A stretch of DNA of 34,141 bases, taken from IMG/VR virus record IMGVR_UViG_3300032282_001611, positions 1 to 34,141 of that record. One strand, written 5' to 3'. The stretch comes from a virus. The position numbers and the translations under genes were made by a program. Below the pieces are notes generated by a model. That model searched no databases. It saw nothing but the letters and a program-made list of their open reading frames with translations, and had not been told where the DNA came from. Each line of letters begins with the position of its first letter. The first letter of the stretch is position 1. Of this stretch, positions 1,624 through 22,160 are shown piece after piece.

Positions 1624-1691
1624 AAAAAAGTGAAAAAAAGTTCAAAAAAGTGGCAAAAACGGTTGACTGCAACCCTGCTCTAGTGCATAAT
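1624..1691 (+). promoter_or_regulatory. Sigma-70-type promoter with phased A-tracts upstream
   Basis: The promoter reads TTGACT (1663-1668), 17 bp, CATAAT (1686-1691), and precedes the AAA+ ATPase gene. Immediately upstream are four A-tracts at 1624-1629, 1633-1639, 1644-1649 and 1655-1659. Their centres are about 10 bp apart, which predicts intrinsic DNA curvature or an UP element. The expected leader is about 29 nt and includes AAAGGAG. Confidence 0.75.
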
Positions 1692-1726
1692 ACAAACACT
1701 AGGCAATAACACAAAGGAGCTTGTAT

Positions 1727-2987: not shown

Positions 2988-4040
2988 ATGGCAGTCAAAC
3001 GCCTTACCCGTAAGCTCACGGATGTTATCGCCGAAGTTGAAACACAACTCAAGGCCCACTATAACGTCACGCAAAAAGAACTTGATGCATGGCGAGCCCG
3101 TGCGCAAGCATTGCAACATAAATTCCCAGTCAGCTCAATGATAGCGATTGAGGACCTTTGGATCGACTACGAAGTCCAACGTGATGTGTTGCACAAGCAT
3201 ATTATCAACATCATGAAGAAATGGGATCCAAGGATTTGTAGTCCTGGCTCAGCTTGTCGCATTGTAGGCAGACCAAATACCTTTCTTTATGATGCGCAAC
3301 ACCGTACCATTGCCGCAGGGCTTCTTGGCTTTACGGAAATTCCATGTGCAGTCGTGGAAACATCTGATCCAAACTTTGCCAGCTATGCATTTGAGATGCT
3401 AAACGACACAGGCGTCAAGCGATTGACTCCAGGCGACTTGCATCGCAATGCATTGGTGCGATACAAGAATGGTAGCCGAGATATCAAAGTGGTACGGGCT
3501 CGTGTGTTACAAGACCAATTCGACAAGGCGGGTATTGACTTGCAAGACAAAGGCTCACGTGCCAGCGACAACCTACGTGGTAGCAACGACTACTTCTTCA
3601 GCCACTTCAAGTATGCCTACAAAGCGATTGAAGTTGATGAAAAAGGTAGTGTCCTTTTTGATGTGTTAGGCGCAATCAAAGAAGTGTTTCCGTTGCAGGA
3701 AGAAATTGACCAAGGTGTGTTTATTGGTCTCAATGAGATTGAACGTCTGTGCGGAATCAACAATATCAAACTGCCTGTTGGTTGGATGAAGACTCTGTTG
3801 GAGAGTGTGAAGCAGACGTTCAAGAGTTCGGCGTTGGTACATGCCAAAGCCAAGGTGCAATGGGAACATGTCAAGCCAGGGTCAACTTGGAGTGCGCCCA
3901 GCGCAATGAGCAACTTCTTGCGCGAGCTACACTTGCGCAATGGTGGTACACTAGCTATTCCTTATCATGGCGATGGTGCCAAGATGGGTATCGAAGAAGG
4001 CAATGCAGCCCCGGGATTGTTCCCTGACACGGAGAAGTAA
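2988..4040 (+). CDS. ParB/sulfiredoxin-fold domain protein
   Basis: A 350-residue protein starting at ATG 2988 behind AGAAGGAA; an in-frame GTG 30 nt upstream lacks a site. Residues about 55-130 (DYEVQRDVLHKHIINIMKKWDP, then IVGRPNTFLYDAQHR and TIAAGLLGFTEIPCAVVE) have the layout of the ParB N-terminal/sulfiredoxin fold: a sentence listing positions to vary, then a display strand and the DAQHR turn. This fold includes CTP-binding ParB proteins, nucleases and phosphate-processing enzymes. The remaining 220 residues look helical and are unassigned. It follows the AAA+ gene but has its own promoter and is 2 nt from the next gene. Whether it binds CTP, cuts DNA or regulates is not visible. Confidence 0.65.
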   Translation: MAVKRLTRKLTDVIAEVETQLKAHYNVTQKELDAWRARAQALQHKFPVSSMIAIEDLWIDYEVQRDVLHKHIINIMKKWDPRICSPGSACRIVGRPNTFLYDAQHRTIAAGLLGFTEIPCAVVETSDPNFASYAFEMLNDTGVKRLTPGDLHRNALVRYKNGSRDIKVVRARVLQDQFDKAGIDLQDKGSRASDNLRGSNDYFFSHFKYAYKAIEVDEKGSVLFDVLGAIKEVFPLQEEIDQGVFIGLNEIERLCGINNIKLPVGWMKTLLESVKQTFKSSALVHAKAKVQWEHVKPGSTWSAPSAMSNFLRELHLRNGGTLAIPYHGDGAKMGIEEGNAAPGLFPDTEK

Positions 4041-4041
4041 G

Positions 4042-4584
4042 ATGGCTACTGGTATGGCTACAGAAGAAGACTACAAGTTTTTTGATTTCCTTGCTCCCTA
4101 TGTATGGCCTGAATATACTGCCAAACAACTTGCTCTTCTACGTAAGCAAGTTGAAATGGGTATAATTCAAATTGAAACTATGTTAGAAAATGCTCTAGCA
4201 AATGCTAGTGGAACATATACAAGGATTGCTGAAAATGGTAGAGATTTCACAGACAACAGCGATGCTAAAAAATCCGTTAGCAATTTTCGTAACAATAATA
4301 CTTGGCGAGATCAATGGACAAATAGTTTTGCTATAACAAATCTTAAGAATAAAACTGGTCTAATACGTGCTCTTTGTTATAGCAAAGAACAAGACAAGTT
4401 TTATTGTTTTGCCATACCGCATAGGGCATATAAAGGCATGGCCAGGGTTGATATTATATTAGACACTAGCACAGGTTATAGAGAGCCAATTGGTATTCCA
4501 GGAGGTAAATGGAACTACTATCAAGTTAAAGATTTCCTAAGGTTGGCAACTATTACTGAGAAGGAAGCAAATAGATATGCTTAA
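4042..4584 (+). CDS. Hypothetical protein, AT-rich, with a conserved-looking GRDFTDNSDAK motif
   Basis: A 180-residue protein at ATG 4042, behind GGAG in the end of the previous gene. I do not recognise a named family. The motif GRDFTDNSDAKKS (about residues 68-80), the later segment KTGLIRALCYSKEQDKFYCF, and IPHRAYKG form an alpha/beta pattern resembling nuclease-like phage ORFs, but I cannot identify the catalytic residues with confidence. Its codons favour A/T at third positions much more than the flanking genes (AAT, GCT, ATA, TTA), suggesting recent acquisition. It overlaps the next gene by 8 nt and so is embedded in the operon. Confidence 0.6.
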   Translation: MATGMATEEDYKFFDFLAPYVWPEYTAKQLALLRKQVEMGIIQIETMLENALANASGTYTRIAENGRDFTDNSDAKKSVSNFRNNNTWRDQWTNSFAITNLKNKTGLIRALCYSKEQDKFYCFAIPHRAYKGMARVDIILDTSTGYREPIGIPGGKWNYYQVKDFLRLATITEKEANRYA

Positions 4585-5137
4585 AGAATCACTTGAATCG
4601 TTCCGTGCACCAAGCTATGGCAAGACCAAGCGTAGTGCTGACACCTACCGGACTGTGGCAAATCATTGCCGCAGTCACTTGACTGGGCTGGTTGTAGAGT
4701 ACAAGTCTGTTGAAAATGATCAACAGCGCCTGCGTGAAATTCGCAACGACATGGATTACTATCTGCGTCGTTATCACGAGTACTGTATCCAACAGCGTGA
4801 TGGTATGAAGGCGCACTATCATGAAGTGGACGCAGACGAGGATTGCGACTTTGAACATTTGATTCCAGCGGCACGTATCCGTGACCTGCTGTTGGCAGAT
4901 GTGTTTACAGTTGAGCAGGCACTGAATGCTCCTACTGTACGGCTGAGTCGTGACAAGCATGAGGCATTGAAGGATGCAGGTTGGGCCAGCAAGACTCCAG
5001 ACATGTGGCACCCGTTTAAGAGATATTCAGGGGTGTTTACAGCTAAGTACACTACCCACGATGGCACAGAGATTGATCCAAACACTTGGACATTGGAAGA
5101 CCACTTCCGCTACTTTTCACATCTGGTGATTGAATAG
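4577..5137 (+). CDS. Conserved-looking hypothetical protein
   Basis: A 186-residue protein with ATG 4577 behind AAGGAAG inside the preceding gene. The first 80 residues are helical and basic (RRYHEYCIQQRDGMKAHYHEV). The central CDFEHLIPAARIRDLLLADVFTVEQALNAPT segment, followed by LSRDKHEALKDAGW, looks like the recurring 'DFEH.IP' region I associate with uncharacterised proteins of large aquatic myoviruses. There are no membrane segments. It ends 36 nt before UvsW, and the UvsW promoter begins right at its stop codon. Function is unknown; a nucleic-acid role is only inferred from context. Confidence 0.6.
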   Translation: MLKESLESFRAPSYGKTKRSADTYRTVANHCRSHLTGLVVEYKSVENDQQRLREIRNDMDYYLRRYHEYCIQQRDGMKAHYHEVDADEDCDFEHLIPAARIRDLLLADVFTVEQALNAPTVRLSRDKHEALKDAGWASKTPDMWHPFKRYSGVFTAKYTTHDGTEIDPNTWTLEDHFRYFSHLVIE

Positions 5138-5138
5138 G

Positions 5139-5167
5139 TAGACAAACAACATGGCACCTGCTATACT
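5139..5167 (+). promoter_or_regulatory. Sigma-70-type promoter predicted to give a leaderless uvsW mRNA
   Basis: TAGACA (5139-5144), 17 bp, TATACT (5162-5167). Counting seven bases past the -10 box puts the transcription start at 5174, the A of the uvsW ATG. No Shine-Dalgarno lies in the 20 bases before that ATG. Confidence 0.65.
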
Positions 5168-5173
5168 TGCACA

Positions 5174-6649
5174 ATGAGAACATGTGTCATACGTATAACC
5201 GATGAAGTCAATGCTAAACTGGTTGGATTGGAAGTAACCACTCGCAACCGTTTGGCCAAAGAACTCAAGTTCTTTATGCCCTACGCATTCCACGTTCCAG
5301 CCTACAAGCTGGGACGTTGGGATGGTTGCGTCAGCTTCTTTTCCTTAGGTGGAGCCACCTTTGTAAACTTGCTTGAACGCATACTGCCTGTGCTGTATGA
5401 GGAACATTATGAAGTGTCCATTGAGGACCAGAGAGAACAGCATGACTTAGATTTCGTCCCCATTGATGAAGAATATCATGGGGATATGGTTTGGCCAGAC
5501 AAGCATCCAATGGCAGGCCAGCTGGTACGACTGCGTGACTATCAGGTGGATGCAGTCAATCACTTCCTTACCACTCCACAAAGCATCCAGGAGATTGCCA
5601 CAGGTGCAGGCAAGACCTTGATGACTGCTACCATGAGCAAGTGTGTAGAACATCTTGGCCGTAGCCTAGTCATCGTTCCCAACAAAGACCTTGTGCGGCA
5701 GACATACGAGGACTATCACAACCTAGGACTTGATGTCGGTGTGTATTTTGGTGATGAAAAGCAAACAGACAAGACTCATACCATTGCTACATGGCAGAGC
5801 CTCAACGTGCTAGACAAGCGTTTCAAAGATGGCGAAACCAATGTTAGCTTGGAAGTGTTCTCAACAGGCTTGGCAGCTATCATCGTAGACGAAGTACACC
5901 AAGCCAAGGCAGATGTGCTGAAGAAATTGCTTACAGGACCTTTTGCTAACGTACCAATACGTTGGGGACTGACAGGAACTGTACCAAAAGAAGACTGGCA
6001 GAAGATCAGTCTTGAAGTAAGCCTTGGTCCTGTTGTGAGCAGTCTCAGCGCCGCTACATTGCAGGACATGGGTGTGCTTGCTGAGTGCCATGTGAATGTG
6101 GTGCAGATGGAAGAAACTGCCGAGTATGGTAGTTACCAAGAAGAGCTAGAATATCTTACTACCAACAGCACACGATTAGACTACATTGCTGATCTAATCA
6201 AGAACATCTCAGATACAGGCAACACCTTGGTGCTGGTTGATCGTATTCGTGCTGGAGAACAGATAGTAGAGCGCATTGAAGATAGTGTGTTTGTATCTGG
6301 GTCAATGAAGAGCAAGGACCGTAAAGATGAGTATGATGAAGTGGCGACTGCGACTGGAAAGGTTATTGTGGCTACCTATGGAGTGGCTGCTGTGGGTATT
6401 AACATTCCTCGTATTTTTAATCTGGTATTGCTGGAACCCGGAAAGAGCTTTGTCCGAGTTATACAGTCTATTGGGCGCGGTATTAGAAAAGCACAAGACA
6501 AGGACTTCGTACAGATCTGGGACTTGACTAGCACTAGCAAATTTAGCAAAAGACATTTACGTGAACGCAAGAAGTTCTATGCTGATGCCAAATACCCTTA
6601 TATCATTGAGAAGGTAGATTATCGTTCACAGGGAAAGAAAAAGAAATGA
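5174..6649 (+). CDS. uvsW: UvsW-like superfamily 2 DNA/RNA helicase
   Basis: A 491-residue protein, close to T4 UvsW (about 500 aa). UvsW is an ATP-dependent helicase that unwinds R-loops and drives branch migration and fork regression, shifting replication from origin- to recombination-dependent initiation. The N-terminal 115 residues form the small DNA-binding domain (KFFMPYAFHVPAYKLGRWDG). Helicase motifs follow: Q-motif region LRDYQ (about 119-123), Walker A GAGKT (144-148), DEVH (239-242), TGT (268-270), and motif VI QSIGRGIRKA near residue 435. The gene has its own promoter at the upstream stop codon. Its last four bases (ATGA) start the next gene. Confidence 0.93.
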   Translation: MRTCVIRITDEVNAKLVGLEVTTRNRLAKELKFFMPYAFHVPAYKLGRWDGCVSFFSLGGATFVNLLERILPVLYEEHYEVSIEDQREQHDLDFVPIDEEYHGDMVWPDKHPMAGQLVRLRDYQVDAVNHFLTTPQSIQEIATGAGKTLMTATMSKCVEHLGRSLVIVPNKDLVRQTYEDYHNLGLDVGVYFGDEKQTDKTHTIATWQSLNVLDKRFKDGETNVSLEVFSTGLAAIIVDEVHQAKADVLKKLLTGPFANVPIRWGLTGTVPKEDWQKISLEVSLGPVVSSLSAATLQDMGVLAECHVNVVQMEETAEYGSYQEELEYLTTNSTRLDYIADLIKNISDTGNTLVLVDRIRAGEQIVERIEDSVFVSGSMKSKDRKDEYDEVATATGKVIVATYGVAAVGINIPRIFNLVLLEPGKSFVRVIQSIGRGIRKAQDKDFVQIWDLTSTSKFSKRHLRERKKFYADAKYPYIIEKVDYRSQGKKKK

Positions 6650-7188
6650 GCTCAGTCAGCTATCTATTTCCTACCCCTGTCTTTTGTACTATAGCGTCAC
6701 CATACCTGCAACTTCAAATTGAAGAAGAGTTCAAAGCAAAAGAAGAAGATATAAAGAAATATCTAGGACGTGAAACTTGGGGAGATAACACATCAAGCAC
6801 ATGGCCTTCTATTGGAAACATTCTTACGCAGAAAAATTTAGATGTATTGAAACAGCACATTGATGATTGCTGTAAAGAGTTCCTTAAAGAGATATCCGAA
6901 CCTGCATGTGTGCTTCGTGAATCCTGGGTAAACTACAATCAAAAATACCAATTTCAAAATAGACACGTGCATTTACCAGCCAGGATATCTGGCATCTATT
7001 ATTTGAAAACAACAGGAGTAGATGGAAACCTAGCACTACATCCGCCATCAGATATAATGAATGGTACGACAAAAGAGATTATTCCAGAAACAGGACTAAC
7101 AGTATTGTTCCATTCATGGACGCCTCATTCAGTAAGACAAAATTTAACAGATTCCACTAGGATATCTGTGGCGTTCAATTATTATTGA
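6646..7188 (+). CDS. 2-oxoglutarate/Fe(II)-dependent oxygenase-like protein
   Basis: A 180-residue protein overlapping uvsW by ATGA. It matches the phage/aquatic family of putative 2OG-Fe(II) oxygenases (Pfam 2OG-FeII_Oxy_5 type). The features are an SWVNYN strand, RHVHLPARISGIYYL with H107 and H109 as candidate metal ligands, FHSWTPHSV with the distal histidine H161, and RISVAFNYY with R172 as the likely 2-oxoglutarate anchor. Family members are thought to hydroxylate proteins or other substrates, but substrates are generally unknown. Codon use is AT-richer than its neighbours, similar to the gene at 4042, which points to later acquisition. The oxygenase fold is well supported; activity and substrate are inference. 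Confidence 0.8.
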   Translation: MSSVSYLFPTPVFCTIASPYLQLQIEEEFKAKEEDIKKYLGRETWGDNTSSTWPSIGNILTQKNLDVLKQHIDDCCKEFLKEISEPACVLRESWVNYNQKYQFQNRHVHLPARISGIYYLKTTGVDGNLALHPPSDIMNGTTKEIIPETGLTVLFHSWTPHSVRQNLTDSTRISVAFNYY

Positions 7189-7212
7189 TGTCAAAGATTA
7201 ACAGGGAAAGAA

Positions 7213-7713
7213 ATGAAAATATTAACACATGATAACAACACGTTTGAGTTGAATACTCTACCGGAAGAAATAGATGACCTGCGATATGGAGTACTTGATT
7301 ACAGCGATCCACACAATCCAGATTACTTTTTCGTGCCACTGATCTTCCTTGAGAACTTCTATGCACCTGCCGCTGTGCTACAGATAGGACCTTACCAGAT
7401 TGAAATGCCATTGGATTGGAGCATCGTTATTGGTGAACCAGATCACGGTGATCCAGAGATAGTTCCAATCATGAGCCTAAATGATAGAGGGTTCAAGACC
7501 TTTGCATTCAATCCAATGAAGAGTTTCAAACCTGAATGGCTAAAAGTTGATATTGTAAACGTGTACCAAGAAGTACGATGGTATTTTCCAAAGTTGAAGT
7601 ATGGTCACATACTAGCATTGCCACTTACAGATGGCCCAGAGCCACTGTGTGCTTATTTTGTGAAAGAGACAAATAAGGTTCCTGAGGTCCTCGACATTAG
7701 CAAGATGTGGTAG
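7213..7713 (+). CDS. Conserved-type hypothetical protein of aquatic T4-like phages
   Basis: A 166-residue protein with AGGGAAAG ahead of ATG 7213. I recall proteins with the same order of motifs (PLDWSIVIGEPDHGD, SLNDRGFKTFAFNPM, VYQEVRWYFPKLKYG, CAYFVKE) as uncharacterised neighbours of replication/transcription genes in cyanophages; that is memory, not a search. It is beta-rich, with no membrane segment and no metal motif. The last codons contain the -35 box of the next gene's promoter. A role in replication or late transcription is suggested only by location. Confidence 0.65.
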   Translation: MKILTHDNNTFELNTLPEEIDDLRYGVLDYSDPHNPDYFFVPLIFLENFYAPAAVLQIGPYQIEMPLDWSIVIGEPDHGDPEIVPIMSLNDRGFKTFAFNPMKSFKPEWLKVDIVNVYQEVRWYFPKLKYGHILALPLTDGPEPLCAYFVKETNKVPEVLDISKMW

Positions 7714-7719
7714 TATAAT
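7691..7719 (+). promoter_or_regulatory. Sigma-70-type promoter abutting the gp62-like start codon
   Basis: TCGACA (7691-7696), 17 bp, consensus TATAAT (7714-7719). The predicted start is 7725-7726, and the ATG begins at 7725. No Shine-Dalgarno precedes the ATG. The promoter lies within the 3' end of the previous gene. Confidence 0.65.
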
Positions 7720-7724
7720 ACAAC

Positions 7725-8234
7725 ATGGCAACTAAACCTAAAGCAACAAAAGAAAAGGCAGCACCCAAAGAACGCAAACTGGATATCTTCCAGGAGGTGT
7801 TGCCTGGCATTGATCGTCGCAATATGGAATTCTTCAGCAAGCTATCAGACGAGCAGAAGAAGGAATTCAGTCCTTGGCTAGTGCAACGCTGGGCGGCAAG
7901 TGTTGAAGGTTCAGCAGGTGTGCAGGAGTATTTCATACAGGCAGTTAACGAGCGTTCCAACATCAACATGAAGGAACTCAAAGACCATCCAGAGCTACAG
8001 TGGATGCTACTGTCCAGCTGTGGTATAAAGAAAGCATATAGGCGCAGTTGGATTGGAGCGGCAAAAGGCGTAAAGAAAGATAAAATCACAGAGTTTATTT
8101 CTGAACTGTATCCAAGTGCAGGCGAACAGGAAATTGAACTCATGCGCATCATCAATGATGAAAGCGAGCTCAAGCAAATTGCTGAACAGATGAACCTTAA
8201 GAAATCAGAAATCAAGGAAGTGTTCGGTGGATGA
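7725..8234 (+). CDS. gp62-like small subunit of the sliding-clamp loader
   Basis: A 169-residue protein. After a basic, lysine/alanine-rich N-terminal 20 residues, its body follows the order I know for clamp-loader small subunits of aquatic T4-like phages: FSPWLVQRWAAS, then a FIQAVNER...LQWMLL helix pair, a basic RRSWIG segment, and a C-terminal KITEFISELYPSAGEQEI helix series. In T4, gp62 with the AAA+ subunit gp44 loads the gp45 clamp for DNA polymerase and late transcription. No gp44 or gp45 gene is in this window, which weakens the context. The ATGA overlap couples it to the zinc-finger gene. Alternative: an unrelated helical phage protein. Confidence 0.55.
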   Translation: MATKPKATKEKAAPKERKLDIFQEVLPGIDRRNMEFFSKLSDEQKKEFSPWLVQRWAASVEGSAGVQEYFIQAVNERSNINMKELKDHPELQWMLLSSCGIKKAYRRSWIGAAKGVKKDKITEFISELYPSAGEQEIELMRIINDESELKQIAEQMNLKKSEIKEVFGG

Positions 8235-8917
8235 AAGATCAACTTGAATGTAGGTTTTGTGGTAAGTCTTTCCAAAAAGAAAGCACACTGGTTGCGCACA
8301 TGTGCGAACCCAAGCGCAGGATACTGTCAGAAAATGACAAGCCTAATCGCATAGGATACAATGCTTGGTTGATATTTCGCAAGCTGATGACTCCAAGTGC
8401 AAAGAAGACTCCTACATATGAAGACTTTACCAAGAACAAATACTACACAACATTTGTCAAGCTAGGCAAGCGGATCGTTGACCTAAGTATACCAGAGCCA
8501 GACAATTTTGTTAAGTACTTGGTAATGAACTCTGTTAAGTTTTCCAACTGGGGCAAAGACTTTGTGTATGAAATGTACATACGAGAAATGACCAAGAAGG
8601 AAACAATACAACGTGCGGCAGAAAGAACAGTACTGCTAATGCAACAATGGGGTATGGATCAACAACAGGATTGGAAAAAGTTCTGGACCAATGTTAGCAC
8701 CACACAGGCATTGCATTGGATACGTGTAGGAAGACTGAGTCCCTGGGTCATGCTTGGCACTGAACAAGGCAAGGGTTTGCTAGATAGATTTGACCAACAT
8801 CAGTTGCAAGAAGCAACTGGCTACATAGAACTAGATCCGTGGCGCATCAGGATAGCACGTAACAAAGACGAGTGCATATGGATGCAACAGGTATTCAACA
8901 AGGTTGAGGAAGAATAA
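8231..8917 (+). CDS. Zinc-finger-containing phage protein
   Basis: A 228-residue protein with an N-terminal C2HC finger: C7-x2-C10, H23 and C25 (ECRFCGKSF...TLVAHMCEPKRR). A basic EPKRR run follows directly, as in nucleic-acid-binding fingers. The remaining 200 residues are mostly helical and aromatic-rich (KFSNWGKDFVYEMYIREM) with no catalytic signature I can name. It is translationally coupled by ATGA to the gp62-like gene and shares one base with the following gene. Proteins of this layout recur near replication genes of T4-like aquatic phages in my recollection. A DNA- or RNA-binding accessory role is likely but unproven. Confidence 0.7.
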   Translation: MKDQLECRFCGKSFQKESTLVAHMCEPKRRILSENDKPNRIGYNAWLIFRKLMTPSAKKTPTYEDFTKNKYYTTFVKLGKRIVDLSIPEPDNFVKYLVMNSVKFSNWGKDFVYEMYIREMTKKETIQRAAERTVLLMQQWGMDQQQDWKKFWTNVSTTQALHWIRVGRLSPWVMLGTEQGKGLLDRFDQHQLQEATGYIELDPWRIRIARNKDECIWMQQVFNKVEEE

Positions 8918-9129
8918 TGATGGAACAATATAACAACGTAACTGAAACGCAAATCCGCGAAGAAAATAAAGTGTTGCGACAAGCAGGCGATCCAGCCGAC
9001 ATACGACAGCTTAAGGCATTGGTTGCCATGCTTATCAAGAAGGTCGATGACATTGAACAACGGCTGACACGCACCATGTCAGAAGCAAAGTCAGCACGTG
9101 ATGCGTCAAGACATGCAATAAGGAAATAA
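8917..9129 (+). CDS. Small coiled-coil hypothetical protein
   Basis: A 70-residue charged protein starting at ATG 8917 (overlapping the previous stop by one base) or the adjacent ATG 8920, after GAGGAAG. Residues about 28-60 (LKALVAMLIKKVDDIEQRL) have heptad-like hydrophobic spacing, suggesting a dimeric coiled coil. There is no membrane segment. Spacing to the next gene is 2 nt, and its last codons AGGAAATAA supply that gene's ribosome-binding site. Confidence 0.55.
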   Translation: MMEQYNNVTETQIREENKVLRQAGDPADIRQLKALVAMLIKKVDDIEQRLTRTMSEAKSARDASRHAIRK

Positions 9130-9131
9130 TT

Positions 9132-9722
9132 GTGAAAGCGCAAGGTACAGACATTGATATCGACCTAGCAGATAGAGAACTACTGCTGAGGTTGATTGAT
9201 CACGTTCCTGCAATGCAGAAAGATCCTCGTGGCCGCACAACTAAACATAATACAGGTGTTTACTTCCACGATGTGCCTACAGATCCATTTACTGGATTAT
9301 GTACACTGGATTATAAGACTGCTGAGGAAGTTGGTTACTTTAAGATTGACGTTCTTAACGTCAACATCTATAAGGATGTGAAAGATCCAGAACATCTGGA
9401 TAGGCTTGCCGCACAAGAACCAAATTGGGATTTACTACAGCACAAGGAAATCATACAACAACTCTTCCATATACACGGACATGCGGATCTTGTTGTACGT
9501 TCTAAGCCACAAACACTAGATCAACTAGCAATGGTATTGGCGTTGATTAGACCGGGCAAGCGACACCTGGTTGGTAGACCATGGGATGAGGTTGAATCTC
9601 AGATATGGGATAAGGGTGATGAAGGATATAGCTTTAAGAGAAGCCATGCTCTAGGCTATGCACTGGCTATTGTTGTACAGTTGAATCTTCTGCAGGAACA
9701 AGCCTTGGGGTTGCTAGATTAA
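9132..9722 (+). CDS. Miniature DNA polymerase III alpha (DnaE/PolC)-like protein
   Basis: A 196-residue protein with a GTG start after AAGGAAA. It carries, in the right order, condensed versions of C-family polymerase landmarks. D9-I-D11 in TDIDIDLADR matches the DFDVDF catalytic pair; KHNTGVYF (38-45) matches KHAGGVVI; EEVGYFKIDVLNV with D73 matches the third catalytic aspartate region (VKFDFLGL). LALIRPGKR (137-144) matches LVALFRPG, and YSFKRSHALGYALA (166-179) matches YGFNKSHSAAYALV. Bacterial DnaE is over 1100 residues, so almost all fingers and thumb are missing. I recall similar uncharacterised proteins in cyanophages. Whether it polymerises, binds DNA or mimics the host polymerase is unknown. 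Its 3' end overlaps the convergent desaturase gene by 56 bp. Confidence 0.7.
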   Translation: MKAQGTDIDIDLADRELLLRLIDHVPAMQKDPRGRTTKHNTGVYFHDVPTDPFTGLCTLDYKTAEEVGYFKIDVLNVNIYKDVKDPEHLDRLAAQEPNWDLLQHKEIIQQLFHIHGHADLVVRSKPQTLDQLAMVLALIRPGKRHLVGRPWDEVESQIWDKGDEGYSFKRSHALGYALAIVVQLNLLQEQALGLLD

Positions 9723-10831: not shown

Positions 10832-11593
10832 ATGAACGTATCGTATGTATATGATCAAACACTCCACGTAATGGTTGGAGTAGGAACCTTAAGGAATACC
10901 CCTATGAATGAACGTCGTTATACGGCTTACATAGGTGTGGACAACACCATTGACTTGCAATTCAAAGACAGAGATCGCAAGCCAGTTGACATCACACTTA
11001 AAACAGTAATTTGGCAGATGACCGATCCTATTACAGGTGAAGCATTGATACGCAAAACTGCTATAGCAAGCGATGCGTCCAAAGGCATGGCCAAACTGCA
11101 ATTATTGGATCATGATACTGCTGGATTAGCTACTGGAATCTATCATGTGGGTATTATGCTGGTTGGAACTGATGGAACAACCAGCGCAAGCTATACAGAC
11201 TTAAACTACGATGCTCGTGCTGAAATTGAATTACGCACAGGTGCATATGAAGCGTTTCGCAACAGCGACCAAACTGTGTCATTTACAGAACCATTTAATA
11301 CCATGGGATATTCTGGTCCAGTTAAAGCAGCCGGTAGTGTCAGTGATGTTTGTTCGCTCAACACAGTCGCAATTTACATGACTGACTATAAAGGTGCCAT
11401 TCATTTAGAATCCAGTATAGAAGAAATCCCAATAAACTGGAGTGCGCTTGGTGATCCAGTTGGATGGGAATATAACACCTACACTGGCATTGATACTTTC
11501 AATATTACCAGCCGTGCAAAATGGTTGCGTATCAAGTATATTGCAGACATAACGAACACAGGCACCATTGACAAAGTCATCTGCAGAGCGTAA
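10832..11593 (+). CDS. Probable virion protein with a BppU-N-like domain
   Basis: A 253-residue beta-rich protein. Residues about 28-135 (YTAYIGVDNTIDLQFKDRD, then PVDITLKTVIWQM, then GIYHVGIMLVGTDG) resemble the immunoglobulin-like N-terminal domain of baseplate upper proteins: a declared ground term of strands describing extension of a polymer. The C-terminal half (KGAIHLESSIEEIPINWS...RAKWLRIKYIAD) is also strand-rich and could be a ligand-binding or structural module. It is preceded by a CATAAATA late promoter and ACAGGAAC, while the next gene has its own sigma-70-type promoter. That supports late expression as a structural component, possibly of the baseplate or fibres. No enzymatic motif is seen. 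Confidence 0.6.
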   Translation: MNVSYVYDQTLHVMVGVGTLRNTPMNERRYTAYIGVDNTIDLQFKDRDRKPVDITLKTVIWQMTDPITGEALIRKTAIASDASKGMAKLQLLDHDTAGLATGIYHVGIMLVGTDGTTSASYTDLNYDARAEIELRTGAYEAFRNSDQTVSFTEPFNTMGYSGPVKAAGSVSDVCSLNTVAIYMTDYKGAIHLESSIEEIPINWSALGDPVGWEYNTYTGIDTFNITSRAKWLRIKYIADITNTGTIDKVICRA

Positions 11594-11596
11594 ACT
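11568..11596 (+). promoter_or_regulatory. Sigma-70-type promoter abutting the GTG start of primase
   Basis: TTGACA (11568-11573), 17 bp, TAAACT (11591-11596). Seven bases past the -10 box is 11603, the G of the primase GTG. No Shine-Dalgarno is present. The -10 box covers the stop codon of the upstream virion gene. Confidence 0.65.
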
Positions 11597-11602
11597 AGCT
11601 TT

Positions 11603-12568
11603 GTGAGTCTGATTCAAGAAACTATAAAAGCGCATGTTCACGGATTGAGAGCTAGCCCTAAGGGCTGGTGGACAATCAACTGTCCTATGTGCGTGGCATT
11701 TGGACAACCGCGGCCAGACACAAAGCGCCGCGGAGGATTCCGCTTTGACTCGGACGGTAGCACAGCATATCATTGCTTCAACTGTGGCTTCAAAGTACGC
11801 TGGCAACCAGGCCAGGGCATGGGACATAAGCTCAAAACATTGCTACGCCAAATTGGTGTAGACGAAGGAGAGGTGCAACGCCTCAACCTACAGTTGATGA
11901 GTGAACGAGATGACACACAGATAGTTGAGTACAAGGCAGAAGAGATATGGACACCAGAATGGCCCACTATAGATGTACCAGGATCTAGTACACTGACATG
12001 CGAAGCCGCAGAATATATAGAAGAAAGAAAAATGACAGGGCTTGCAGACTGGCATTGGTGTGATGCCAAGTTCTGGAACATTGACAGGCGTGTGATTTTA
12101 CCGTATACTTGGGAAGGTAACACAGTAGGATATGCCGCACGTTGGATAGGCACACCGCCCAAGGACACAGCTAAGATACTACGCAAGGCACCAACTGACT
12201 TTGTGTTCAACATGGATCCGCAAGGCGAACCCCGTAAGTTTGTGCTGGTAGTAGAAGGCGAGTTTGATGCACTAGCAGTTGATGGTGTTGCAGTACTACA
12301 CAATGACATAAGTCCCAAACAGGCACAGTTGATTGCAGACCTGGATGTTGAACCCATCGTAGTGCCAGATAAGGATCGTAGTGGAACCCGGCTAGCAGAA
12401 CGTGCGATAGAATTAGGATGGAGCGTGGCATTCCCAGACTGGGATAACGGAATAAAGGATTGCGCAGATGCGACTAAAGCGTATGGCCGAGTGGTAACGC
12501 TAAACAGTATAATACAATCGAGACAAGATAATCCGTTGAAGATAAAAATTATGTTAAGGAAGAATTGA
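11603..12568 (+). CDS. DNA primase (T4 gp61-like)
   Basis: A 321-residue primase, close to T4 gp61 (342 aa). It synthesises RNA primers on the lagging strand in complex with the gp41 helicase. The N-terminal zinc site is C27-x2-C30 ... C58-x2-C61 (INCPMC, HCFNC). The TOPRIM core has VVEGEFDAL (E218 and E220) and VVPDKDRSG (D256 and D258), giving the metal-binding acidic residues. The GTG at 11603 is the only early start that retains the zinc domain, and it has no ribosome-binding site. Its stop codon overlaps the start of gp41 by one base, matching the functional primosome pair. Confidence 0.9.
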   Translation: MSLIQETIKAHVHGLRASPKGWWTINCPMCVAFGQPRPDTKRRGGFRFDSDGSTAYHCFNCGFKVRWQPGQGMGHKLKTLLRQIGVDEGEVQRLNLQLMSERDDTQIVEYKAEEIWTPEWPTIDVPGSSTLTCEAAEYIEERKMTGLADWHWCDAKFWNIDRRVILPYTWEGNTVGYAARWIGTPPKDTAKILRKAPTDFVFNMDPQGEPRKFVLVVEGEFDALAVDGVAVLHNDISPKQAQLIADLDVEPIVVPDKDRSGTRLAERAIELGWSVAFPDWDNGIKDCADATKAYGRVVTLNSIIQSRQDNPLKIKIMLRKN

Positions 12569-21454: not shown

Positions 21455-21483
21455 TTGACACTTGTCGCAAAATCGCTTACACT
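21455..21483 (+). promoter_or_regulatory. Sigma-70-type promoter inside the late region
   Basis: TTGACA (21455-21460), 17 bp, TACACT (21478-21483). Seven bases past the -10 box is 21490, one base into the exonuclease ATG (21489). No Shine-Dalgarno precedes it. Confidence 0.7.
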
Positions 21484-21488
21484 AAGCG

Positions 21489-22160
21489 ATGATCACAATA
21501 AATCCCCCTGTAATATATCATAAACTAGAACGAATAGATAGCCCAAATGGGCGTAGGTATCTAACTCCAAACGGGGGTGATAAGTTACCTTCTGTAACAG
21601 AAATCCTTTCCAAGACTGGAGATAAGACTGCGCTGATTGAATGGCGCAAACGTGTTGGTGATGAAGAAGCCAACCGTATCTCAAAAGAATCAACAGGACT
21701 TGGTACACTTGTACACAAGCATGTTGAGAATCATATTCTAGGTGAAGAGCGTCCGGGTGGCACAAATGATGTTCGTATGTTGGCTAAAACATTAGCAGAC
21801 AATATCATTGAAAAAGGGCTAGTCGAAGTTAATGAAGTATGGGCAATGGAACAGCCATTGTATTATCCAGGATTGTATGCTGGTACAGCTGACTTGATTG
21901 GTGTATTCCGCGGCATTCCTTCAATCATGGATCACAAGACTAGCAAGCTCTTAAAGAAAGAAGAGTGGGTACAAGACTACTTCATGCAGTTATGTGCATA
22001 CGCTCTTGCCCACAATGAAGTATATGGAACCGACATCAAGCAAGGTGCTATTTTTATGGCAGCTAGAGACGGAACATATAAAACGTATGTCTTAGAAGGT
22101 ACTAAGTGGCAAGAAAGCTGTGAAGCATGGACCAGACGTGTTGAAGCCTATTACAGCTAA
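21489..22160 (+). CDS. RecB-family PD-(D/E)XK exonuclease (MGME1/Cas4-like)
   Basis: A 223-residue nuclease with the RecB-family signature: LPSVTEILS at the N-terminus, GTLVHKHVE with H76, GTAD with D135, DHKTS with D148 and K150, and QLCAYA with Q167 and Y171. Such enzymes degrade DNA ends or trim single-stranded flaps in phage recombination and host DNA breakdown; small phage members relate to mitochondrial MGME1 and lambda-type exonucleases. It has a promoter of the early/middle class although it is surrounded by late genes. Its stop TAA is part of the late promoter of the next gene. Family assignment is strong; polarity is unknown. Confidence 0.88.
   Translation: MITINPPVIYHKLERIDSPNGRRYLTPNGGDKLPSVTEILSKTGDKTALIEWRKRVGDEEANRISKESTGLGTLVHKHVENHILGEERPGGTNDVRMLAKTLADNIIEKGLVEVNEVWAMEQPLYYPGLYAGTADLIGVFRGIPSIMDHKTSKLLKKEEWVQDYFMQLCAYALAHNEVYGTDIKQGAIFMAARDGTYKTYVLEGTKWQESCEAWTRRVEAYYS

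What the first reader, a model, noticed from the sequence alone, without database searches (positions are those of the whole stretch)
5139..5176. Promoter whose start falls exactly on the uvsW ATG: a leaderless mRNA class
TAGACA-N17-TATACT ends 6 bases before ATG 5174, and no Shine-Dalgarno is present. The same layout recurs at 7725, 11603 and 21489, each with a 17-bp spacer and the start codon 5-6 bases after the -10 box. Four independent cases in 34 kb make chance unlikely and point to a phage class of leaderless messages for DNA-metabolism genes.
Basis: partly seen in the sequence, partly recalled or inferred. Interest (0 to 1): 0.75.

Follow-up and report, generated by a model that had tools for sequence, protein, structure and literature searches.

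The report
Leaderless gene starts in giant phages
In a large, mostly uncultured group of giant T4-like phages, promoters are placed so that the gene's start codon should be the first letters of the messenger RNA, with no leader, and this layout has been kept at DNA-replication genes through deep evolutionary divergence.

Summary
TAGACA-17-TATACT-6-ATG lies at 5139-5176, with three more such sites at 7725 (unknown), 11603 (primase, GTG start) and 21489 (exonuclease). In the window, 4 of 41 starts carry it against about 0.05 expected; 300 shuffles gave at most 1. The layout is conserved in relatives: a sigma70-type site ends 5-7 nt before the start of primase in 64 of 85 orthologs, exonuclease in 39 of 59 and uvsW in 19 of 83, against 0.2-0.4% background. 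Among those 122 starts the base before the codon is a pyrimidine in 103 (controls 355 of 775), none has a Shine-Dalgarno-like 4-mer (controls 350 of 775), and 116 are ATG. Large relatives also place T4-type late promoters 4-5 nt before ATG, including at terminase and virion genes, so "DNA-metabolism genes" is too narrow. RaK2 lacks both classes. Transcript 5' ends and translation were not measured. Leaderless phage messages are known singly; a conserved two-promoter class in T4-like jumbo phages was not found in print (ten searches, listed under Tried and rejected).

The parts
5139..5144 (+). -35 element TAGACA of the uvsW promoter
5162..5167 (+). -10 element TATACT of the uvsW promoter (17-bp spacer; 6 nt to ATG)
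5174..6649 (+). uvsW-like DNA helicase gene, predicted leaderless; the conserved N-terminus begins at this ATG and the next in-frame ATG is 34 codons downstream
7691..7696 (+). -35 element TCGACA, inside the 3' end of the upstream ORF (7213-7713)
7714..7719 (+). -10 element TATAAT directly after the upstream stop; 5 nt to ATG 7725
7725..8234 (+). gene of unknown function (phrog_11758), predicted leaderless
   Evidence: relatives of the same family with the layout, L010, L019 and L046,
11568..11573 (+). -35 element TTGACA, inside the 3' end of the upstream ORF (codons ATT GAC AAA)
11591..11596 (+). -10 element TAAACT, beginning at the upstream stop TAA; 6 nt to GTG 11603
11603..12568 (+). DNA primase (gp61-like) gene, GTG start, predicted leaderless
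21455..21460 (+). -35 element TTGACA, intergenic
21478..21483 (+). -10 element TACACT; 5 nt to ATG 21489
21489..22160 (+). exonuclease gene (phrog_298), predicted leaderless

Best explanation
These are functional host-sigma70-type promoters whose initiating nucleotide is the first base of the start codon, or within one or two bases of it, so they make leaderless mRNAs. They are a conserved class in a broad group of T4-like, mostly jumbo-size phages, mainly at replication and recombination genes (primase, gp41 helicase, uvsW or the gene just upstream of it, exonuclease). Shown: the layout, its statistical excess and conservation, the base preferences, and the lack of SD. Inferred: host RNA polymerase starts at the A (or G) of the start codon; the 5'-AUG message is translated by the leaderless (70S-type) route. 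Likely consequence, inferred: because there is no SD, read-through RNA from upstream should translate these genes poorly, so each gene's own promoter gates its protein output. Large relatives use the same trick with a T4-type late promoter core for virion genes.
For: Window excess. In 81 records (80 uvsW loci plus the window) strong sites by distance to the start: 55 at 6 nt, 9 at 5, 7 at 7, and 0-4 at each of 8-24, then a separate leadered hump near 25-37. Orthologs: primase 64/85, exonuclease 39/59, uvsW 19/83 at 5-7 nt, background 0.16-0.41%. After thinning to under 60% protein identity: primase 20/27, exonuclease 3/6, uvsW 2/11. Of 45 loci without a uvsW site but with an assessable upstream gene, 26 carry the layout at that gene. 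Pyrimidine at -1 in 103/122 vs 355/775 controls; SD-like 4-mer 0/122 vs 350/775; ATG 116/122. Gaps of mostly 31-45 nt, just promoter-sized, hold the uvsW and exonuclease sites. Codon evidence at the primase site: where the -35 overlaps the upstream gene, Asp is GAC in 34/34; where the upstream gene ends well before the start, GAT in 11/13. Late-type class: G001 20 and G003 24 starts with TAAATA at 4-5 nt, shuffles mean 1.1, maxima 5 and 4.
Against: No transcript or protein data. Many loci are close relatives, so raw counts overstate independent events; after thinning, uvsW alone is weak (2/11). The 11 GAT loci sit in about two places on the tree. Part of the whole-genome count is ambiguous: some predicted starts at 5-7 nt are followed by an SD-like stretch and an in-frame ATG about 20-25 nt on. 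The layout is absent or rare in isolates RaK2, Atu_ph07, Phosso and Vibrio 2.275.O. 17 of the 21 primase negatives have the site at 8-10 nt, i.e. 1-3 nt leaders rather than none. The promoter scoring uses E. coli-type weights from memory; the host is unknown.
Confidence: 0.85

Rival explanations
1. The promoters are real but incidental to translation: the genes are mostly translated from longer polycistronic RNAs, by SD-independent initiation, and the short messages contribute little.
For: The genes lie in same-strand runs; no RNA data exclude read-through; T4-type operons are commonly polycistronic (recalled).
Against: Exact 5-7 nt spacing with a pyrimidine at -1 is not explained by it; these starts lack SD where 350/775 control starts have an SD-like 4-mer; upstream stop to start gaps of mostly 31-45 nt disfavour close coupling at uvsW and exonuclease.
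Confidence: 0.1
2. The -35/-10 matches come from coding constraint on the upstream gene's C-terminus plus A/T-rich sequence before start codons.
For: In 27 primase loci the -35 overlaps the end of the upstream gene, mostly a conserved C-terminus G[TV][IVL]DK.
Against: 11 of 12 uvsW sites with an upstream ORF in view, 34 of 35 exonuclease sites and 32 of 62 primase sites lie wholly after the upstream stop. Where they overlap, the preceding residue varies I/V/L but its codon always ends in T and Asp is always GAC, 34/34, against GAC 0.40 in the contigs. Other distances show no such excess.
Confidence: 0.03
3. Short-leader rather than leaderless: transcription begins 1-4 nt upstream of the start codon at many of these genes.
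For: Sigma70 start-site choice varies by a few bases (recalled); 53 of 122 sites are at 7 nt and 17 of 21 primase 'negatives' at 8-10 nt.
Against: Pyrimidine at -1 and purine at the first base of the codon favour the codon itself; a 1-3 nt leader would still have no room for SD.
Confidence: 0.2

Closest known systems
Lambda cI and PY54 cI/cro leaderless phage mRNAs
   Same: Phage promoters with +1 at the AUG; RACE-mapped for PY54 (PMC4488713, passages read); lambda named as the early leaderless case (PMC3160421, passages read).
   Different: Single regulatory genes of temperate phages, not a conserved set of replication genes across a lineage.
Predicted leaderless SigA promoters of Cluster O mycobacteriophages
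   Different: Five close relatives, three promoters, hosts rich in leaderless genes.
Bacterial TA-led leaderless genes (Actinobacteria, Deinococcus-Thermus)
   Same: TANNNT -10 box about 12 bp upstream of the start codon (PMC3160421, passages read).
   Different: Cellular genomes, up to tens of percent of genes; here a selected minority of genes in a virus, with a full -35.
T4-type late promoter (TATAAATA, recalled)
   Same: The late-type leaderless class in G001/G003 carries the TAAATA core.
   Different: The uvsW site here has a -35 and no TAAATA; RaK2 shows no late-type core at 4-5 nt. T4's own leaders were not examined.

Membership tests
Leaderless mRNA gene | -10 element placed so that +1 falls on or next to the start codon | tested here: met
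Leaderless mRNA gene | no Shine-Dalgarno upstream | tested here: met
   0 of 122 promoter-bearing starts vs 350 of 775 controls
Leaderless mRNA gene | start codon is the true translation start | tested here: met
   by sequence only: uvsW homologs align from query residue 1-8; no in-frame start in the window gene until codon 18 (TTG) and 34 (ATG)
Leaderless mRNA gene | mRNA 5' end at the start codon | not testable with these tools
   needs 5'-end mapping in infected cells
Leaderless mRNA gene | translated without leader (70S-type initiation) | not testable with these tools
   needs reporter or ribosome profiling
Sigma70 promoter | -35 and -10 hexamers with about 17-bp spacing | tested here: met
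   base table of the 62 sites at 6 nt
T4 late promoter | TATAAATA core without -35 (uvsW site of the window) | tested here: not met
   uvsW site is TATACT with a -35
T4 middle promoter | MotA box in place of the -35 | not tested
   MotA box not searched; a near-consensus -35 is present

The most novel reading that the evidence does not exclude
This phage lineage runs a leaderless programme in two stages: host-sigma70 promoters for replication genes and late-type promoters for virion genes, each tuned so that +1 is the start codon. Translation is thus gated by promoter choice, and may be tied to ribosomes remodelled by phage-encoded bS21 (found in 11 of 14 records searched) and IF3 (3 of 14).
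Probability: 0.3. Interest if true: 0.85.

Novelty: new variant of a known kind. Interest (0 to 1): 0.66.

Why it matters
Leaderless phage mRNAs are textbook single cases. Here the layout is kept at primase through protein identities down to about 33% (28% for SCTP-2) to the window's protein, which suggests selection for leaderless expression of replication genes in environmental giant phages. It gives a natural system to ask when and why leaderless initiation is favoured during infection. It also matters for annotation: the annotated primase start looks wrong in Salicola phage SCTP-2 and probably in PA5oct, where the leaderless start fits better.

Tried and rejected
Chance and composition: rejected by offset backgrounds, shuffles and the RaK2 contrast. 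Pure coding constraint at the primase site: rejected by codon choice and by loci with intergenic promoters. Restriction to DNA-metabolism genes: rejected by the late-type class. Looking for a late sigma factor in G001-G003: Pfam Sigma70_r2 gave nothing there and the RaK2 sigma-like protein found nothing (which has no positive control), so the late-type promoter identity rests on the motif alone. ATAAATA in the window itself is not above chance (5 vs 6.19 expected). Near-DNA search in phage records: no match. The g7725 row of the ortholog test gave no usable orthologs (its 78 hits yielded 0 rows, for a reason I did not trace), so 7725 rests on the window site and the relatives.

Literature: ten searches found no report of a leaderless class in T4-like or jumbo phages; the library lacks most subscription papers, and I read only passages of eight papers (PMC5312081; PMC13282480; PMC3160421; PMC9031893; PMC9723584; PMC4351075; PMC4488713; PMC9004378, where the only hit was in its reference list); the rest I saw as search listings. 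PMC5312081 reports 26-491 nt leaders in jumbo phage AR9 and remarks that phage transcripts are often leaderless. That phiKZ has leaderless transcripts is recalled and was not confirmed here.

Full report
What was checked. The site is as described: TAGACA 5139-5144, 17 bp, TATACT 5162-5167, six bases, ATG 5174. The three other sites are also as described, except that 11603 starts with GTG and 7725 has TCGACA as its -35. PHROG matches name 5174 a DNA helicase (uvsW-like), 11603 a DNA primase, 21489 an exonuclease, and 7725 a family of unknown function. The window is a 34,141-base virus record with no near-DNA match in phage records (query 3000-9000). Its uvsW protein is nearest, among isolates, to those of jumbo phages: Sinorhizobium phage Phosso 55%, the Pseudomonas PA5oct group 49%, Agrobacterium Atu_ph07 49%. 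The host is unknown.

Chance within the window. Of 41 plus-strand starts, 4 have a site of score 10 or more at 5-6 nt; 0.048 are expected from the per-base rate, and 300 dinucleotide shuffles gave at most 1. The same window holds a leadered contrast: TTGACT-17-CATAAT 29 nt before TTG 1721, with a GGAG before that start.

Relatives of uvsW. In 81 records (these 80 plus the window) strong sites (score 11 or more) by distance from the -10 end to a candidate start were: 55 at 6 nt, 9 at 5, 7 at 7, 2 at 8, 2 at 9, 4 at 10, then 0-4 at each distance to 24, and a second hump near 25-37 nt that looks like ordinary leaders. Loci include close pairs, and up to three candidate starts per gene were used. 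Close relatives keep TTGACA-17-(TATAAT-like)-6-ATG before uvsW although the proteins are only 61-69% identical; most of the more distant loci have no such site at uvsW itself.

Ortholog test. In distinct orthologs a site of score 9 or more ends 5-7 nt before the start in 64 of 85 primases, 39 of 59 exonucleases and 19 of 83 uvsW genes; the same test at other offsets gives 0.16%, 0.41% and 0.34% (rows whose match began after query residue 12, duplicates, and rows with too little upstream sequence were dropped by the script). Thinned to under 60% protein identity the counts are 20/27, 3/6 and 2/11: primase is strong on its own, uvsW alone is not. Of the 21 primase negatives, 17 have a site of score 9 or more at 8-10 nt (my count from the listing); of the 20 exonuclease negatives, 13 have one at 8-11 nt; this is a looser test, best of 80 positions. 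Of 83 uvsW rows, 19 have it at uvsW, 26 at the gene just upstream, 19 at neither, and 19 could not be assessed (14 with too little upstream sequence, 5 with no upstream ORF); no offset control was run for the upstream-gene test.

Signals that the start codon is +1. Over the 122 promoter-bearing starts the base before the codon is a pyrimidine in 103, against 355 of 775 other ATG starts in the same loci; an SD-like 4-mer at -18 to -5 occurs in 0 of 122 against 350 of 775; 116 of 122 start codons are ATG and 6 GTG. Pyrimidine at -1 and purine at +1 is the usual initiator preference of bacterial RNA polymerase (recalled). The rows are related to each other, so these are not 122 independent events. 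Part of the SD contrast is built in, because the -10 occupies that stretch.

Where the promoter sits. For exonuclease and uvsW nearly all sites with an upstream ORF in view lie after the upstream stop, in gaps of mostly 31-45 nt. For primase 32 sites are intergenic, 27 have the -35 inside the upstream gene, 3 are fully covered, and 2 have no upstream ORF in view. In the upstream gene's C-terminal motif the Asp codon is GAC, after a T-ending codon, in 34 of 34 loci where stop and start nearly touch; in 13 loci with a separate gap it is GAT in 11. The two exceptions are L100, an unrelated peptide, and the Vibrio phage L086 (47 of 85 orthologs have the motif). GAC is 0.40 of Asp codons in the contigs of the 27 overlap loci. 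The GAT loci fall in about two places on the primase tree, one being L019 next to L021, so this rests on few events.

Phylogenetic spread. On an 85-row primase tree the label needs 11 changes, against 18.8 when shuffled (0 of 500 shuffles as low). RaK2 with Vibrio 2.275.O, and Phosso with Atu_ph07, lack it; PA5oct and SCTP-2 have it. The tree is unrooted and SCTP-2 and PA5oct are long branches. In isolates, PA5oct exonuclease has the site 7 nt before its annotated ATG. PA5oct primase is annotated from a GTG directly on the -10, while a GTG six bases on fits the layout. SCTP-2 primase is annotated 96 bases too short if the leaderless ATG is right. RaK2 and Vibrio 2.275.O primases have SD-like sequences instead.

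Whole genomes. G001 (357,559 bases), G003 (354,680) and G002 (342,607) have 12, 6 and 7 sites at 5-7 nt, next to a larger leadered hump; RaK2 has 0 and PA5oct 1. Two G002 genes are counted twice through neighbouring starts, and some G001 and G002 cases have an SD-like stretch and an in-frame ATG just downstream, so the true number per genome is lower, perhaps 3-9 (estimate). Families of ten such proteins scanned from G001 and G003: gp41 helicase, primase, a DNA polymerase piece, an endonuclease, exonuclease, a 2OG-Fe(II) oxygenase, a nucleotidyltransferase-like protein, an ABC transporter-like protein, a deoxyribonucleotidase, and one with no match. Leadered strong promoters in G001 (37 proteins scanned) sit before clamp loader, rII and many unknown genes, so replication genes are not exclusively leaderless.

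A second class. The late-type core TAAATA ends 4-5 nt before the longest-ORF start of 20 of 430 genes in G001 and 24 of 383 in G003 (shuffle means 1.1, maxima 5 and 4); G002 5 of 424 (not above its shuffle maximum), PA5oct 1 of 399, RaK2 0 of 523. The base at -1 is a pyrimidine in 18/20 and 20/24. Genes include terminase large subunit, tail tube and other virion proteins. In T4, +1 lies about six bases after the last A of the core (recalled), which would put it on the A of ATG. The same 5-nt peak is seen in the uvsW loci (39 at 5 nt). The window and its nearest relatives do not show it (0 at 4-5 nt in 13 records). No sigma factor was found to go with it.

How it probably works. Host RNA polymerase with its main sigma factor starts at the first base of the codon, giving 5'-AUG messages that 70S ribosomes can bind without SD (mechanism from PMC9031893, passages read). 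Read-through RNA from upstream would carry the same AUG internally without SD and should be translated poorly, so expression would follow the gene's own promoter. These steps are inference. bS21 genes occur in 11 of 14 records and IF3 genes in 3 of 14. PMC9723584 (passages) links phage bS21 to late-stage expression. Any tie to leaderless initiation is speculation.

Verdict.

Noticed in passing
G001 (L256-L273) and G003 (L274-L291): T4-type late core TAAATA ends 4-5 nt before the start codon at 20 and 24 genes, including terminase and tail genes: a second, late leaderless class.
   Followed up: partly
L087 30186-30282; L084 20885-20891: Primase starts in isolates SCTP-2 (annotated too short) and PA5oct (annotated on the -10) look mis-annotated; leaderless starts fit better.
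   Followed up: partly
14 large records: Phage-encoded ribosomal protein bS21 in 11 of 14 and IF3 in 3 of 14 records searched.
   Followed up: no
L258:3844-5073 (-), L024:747-1952 and relatives: A roughly 400-aa gene family starting with (T)IEDCLELLAG, just upstream of uvsW in many loci and often with the leaderless promoter; no PHROG match and no Pfam match above cut-off for the two members scanned.
   Followed up: partly
G001 11920 and 16294; G002 48194 and 117066: Promoters with ATG at the predicted +1 followed by an SD-like stretch and an in-frame ATG about 20-25 nt later: possible dual starts.
   Followed up: no
window 9132-9722: A 196-aa gene matching a DNA polymerase PHROG (phrog_11778); G001 carries a similarly short polymerase piece (phrog_11127), suggesting a split or remnant polymerase.
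   Followed up: no
window 1663-1721: Strong sigma70-type site (TTGACT-17-CATAAT) 29 nt before TTG 1721 with GGAG: an ordinary leadered gene start beside the leaderless ones.
   Followed up: no
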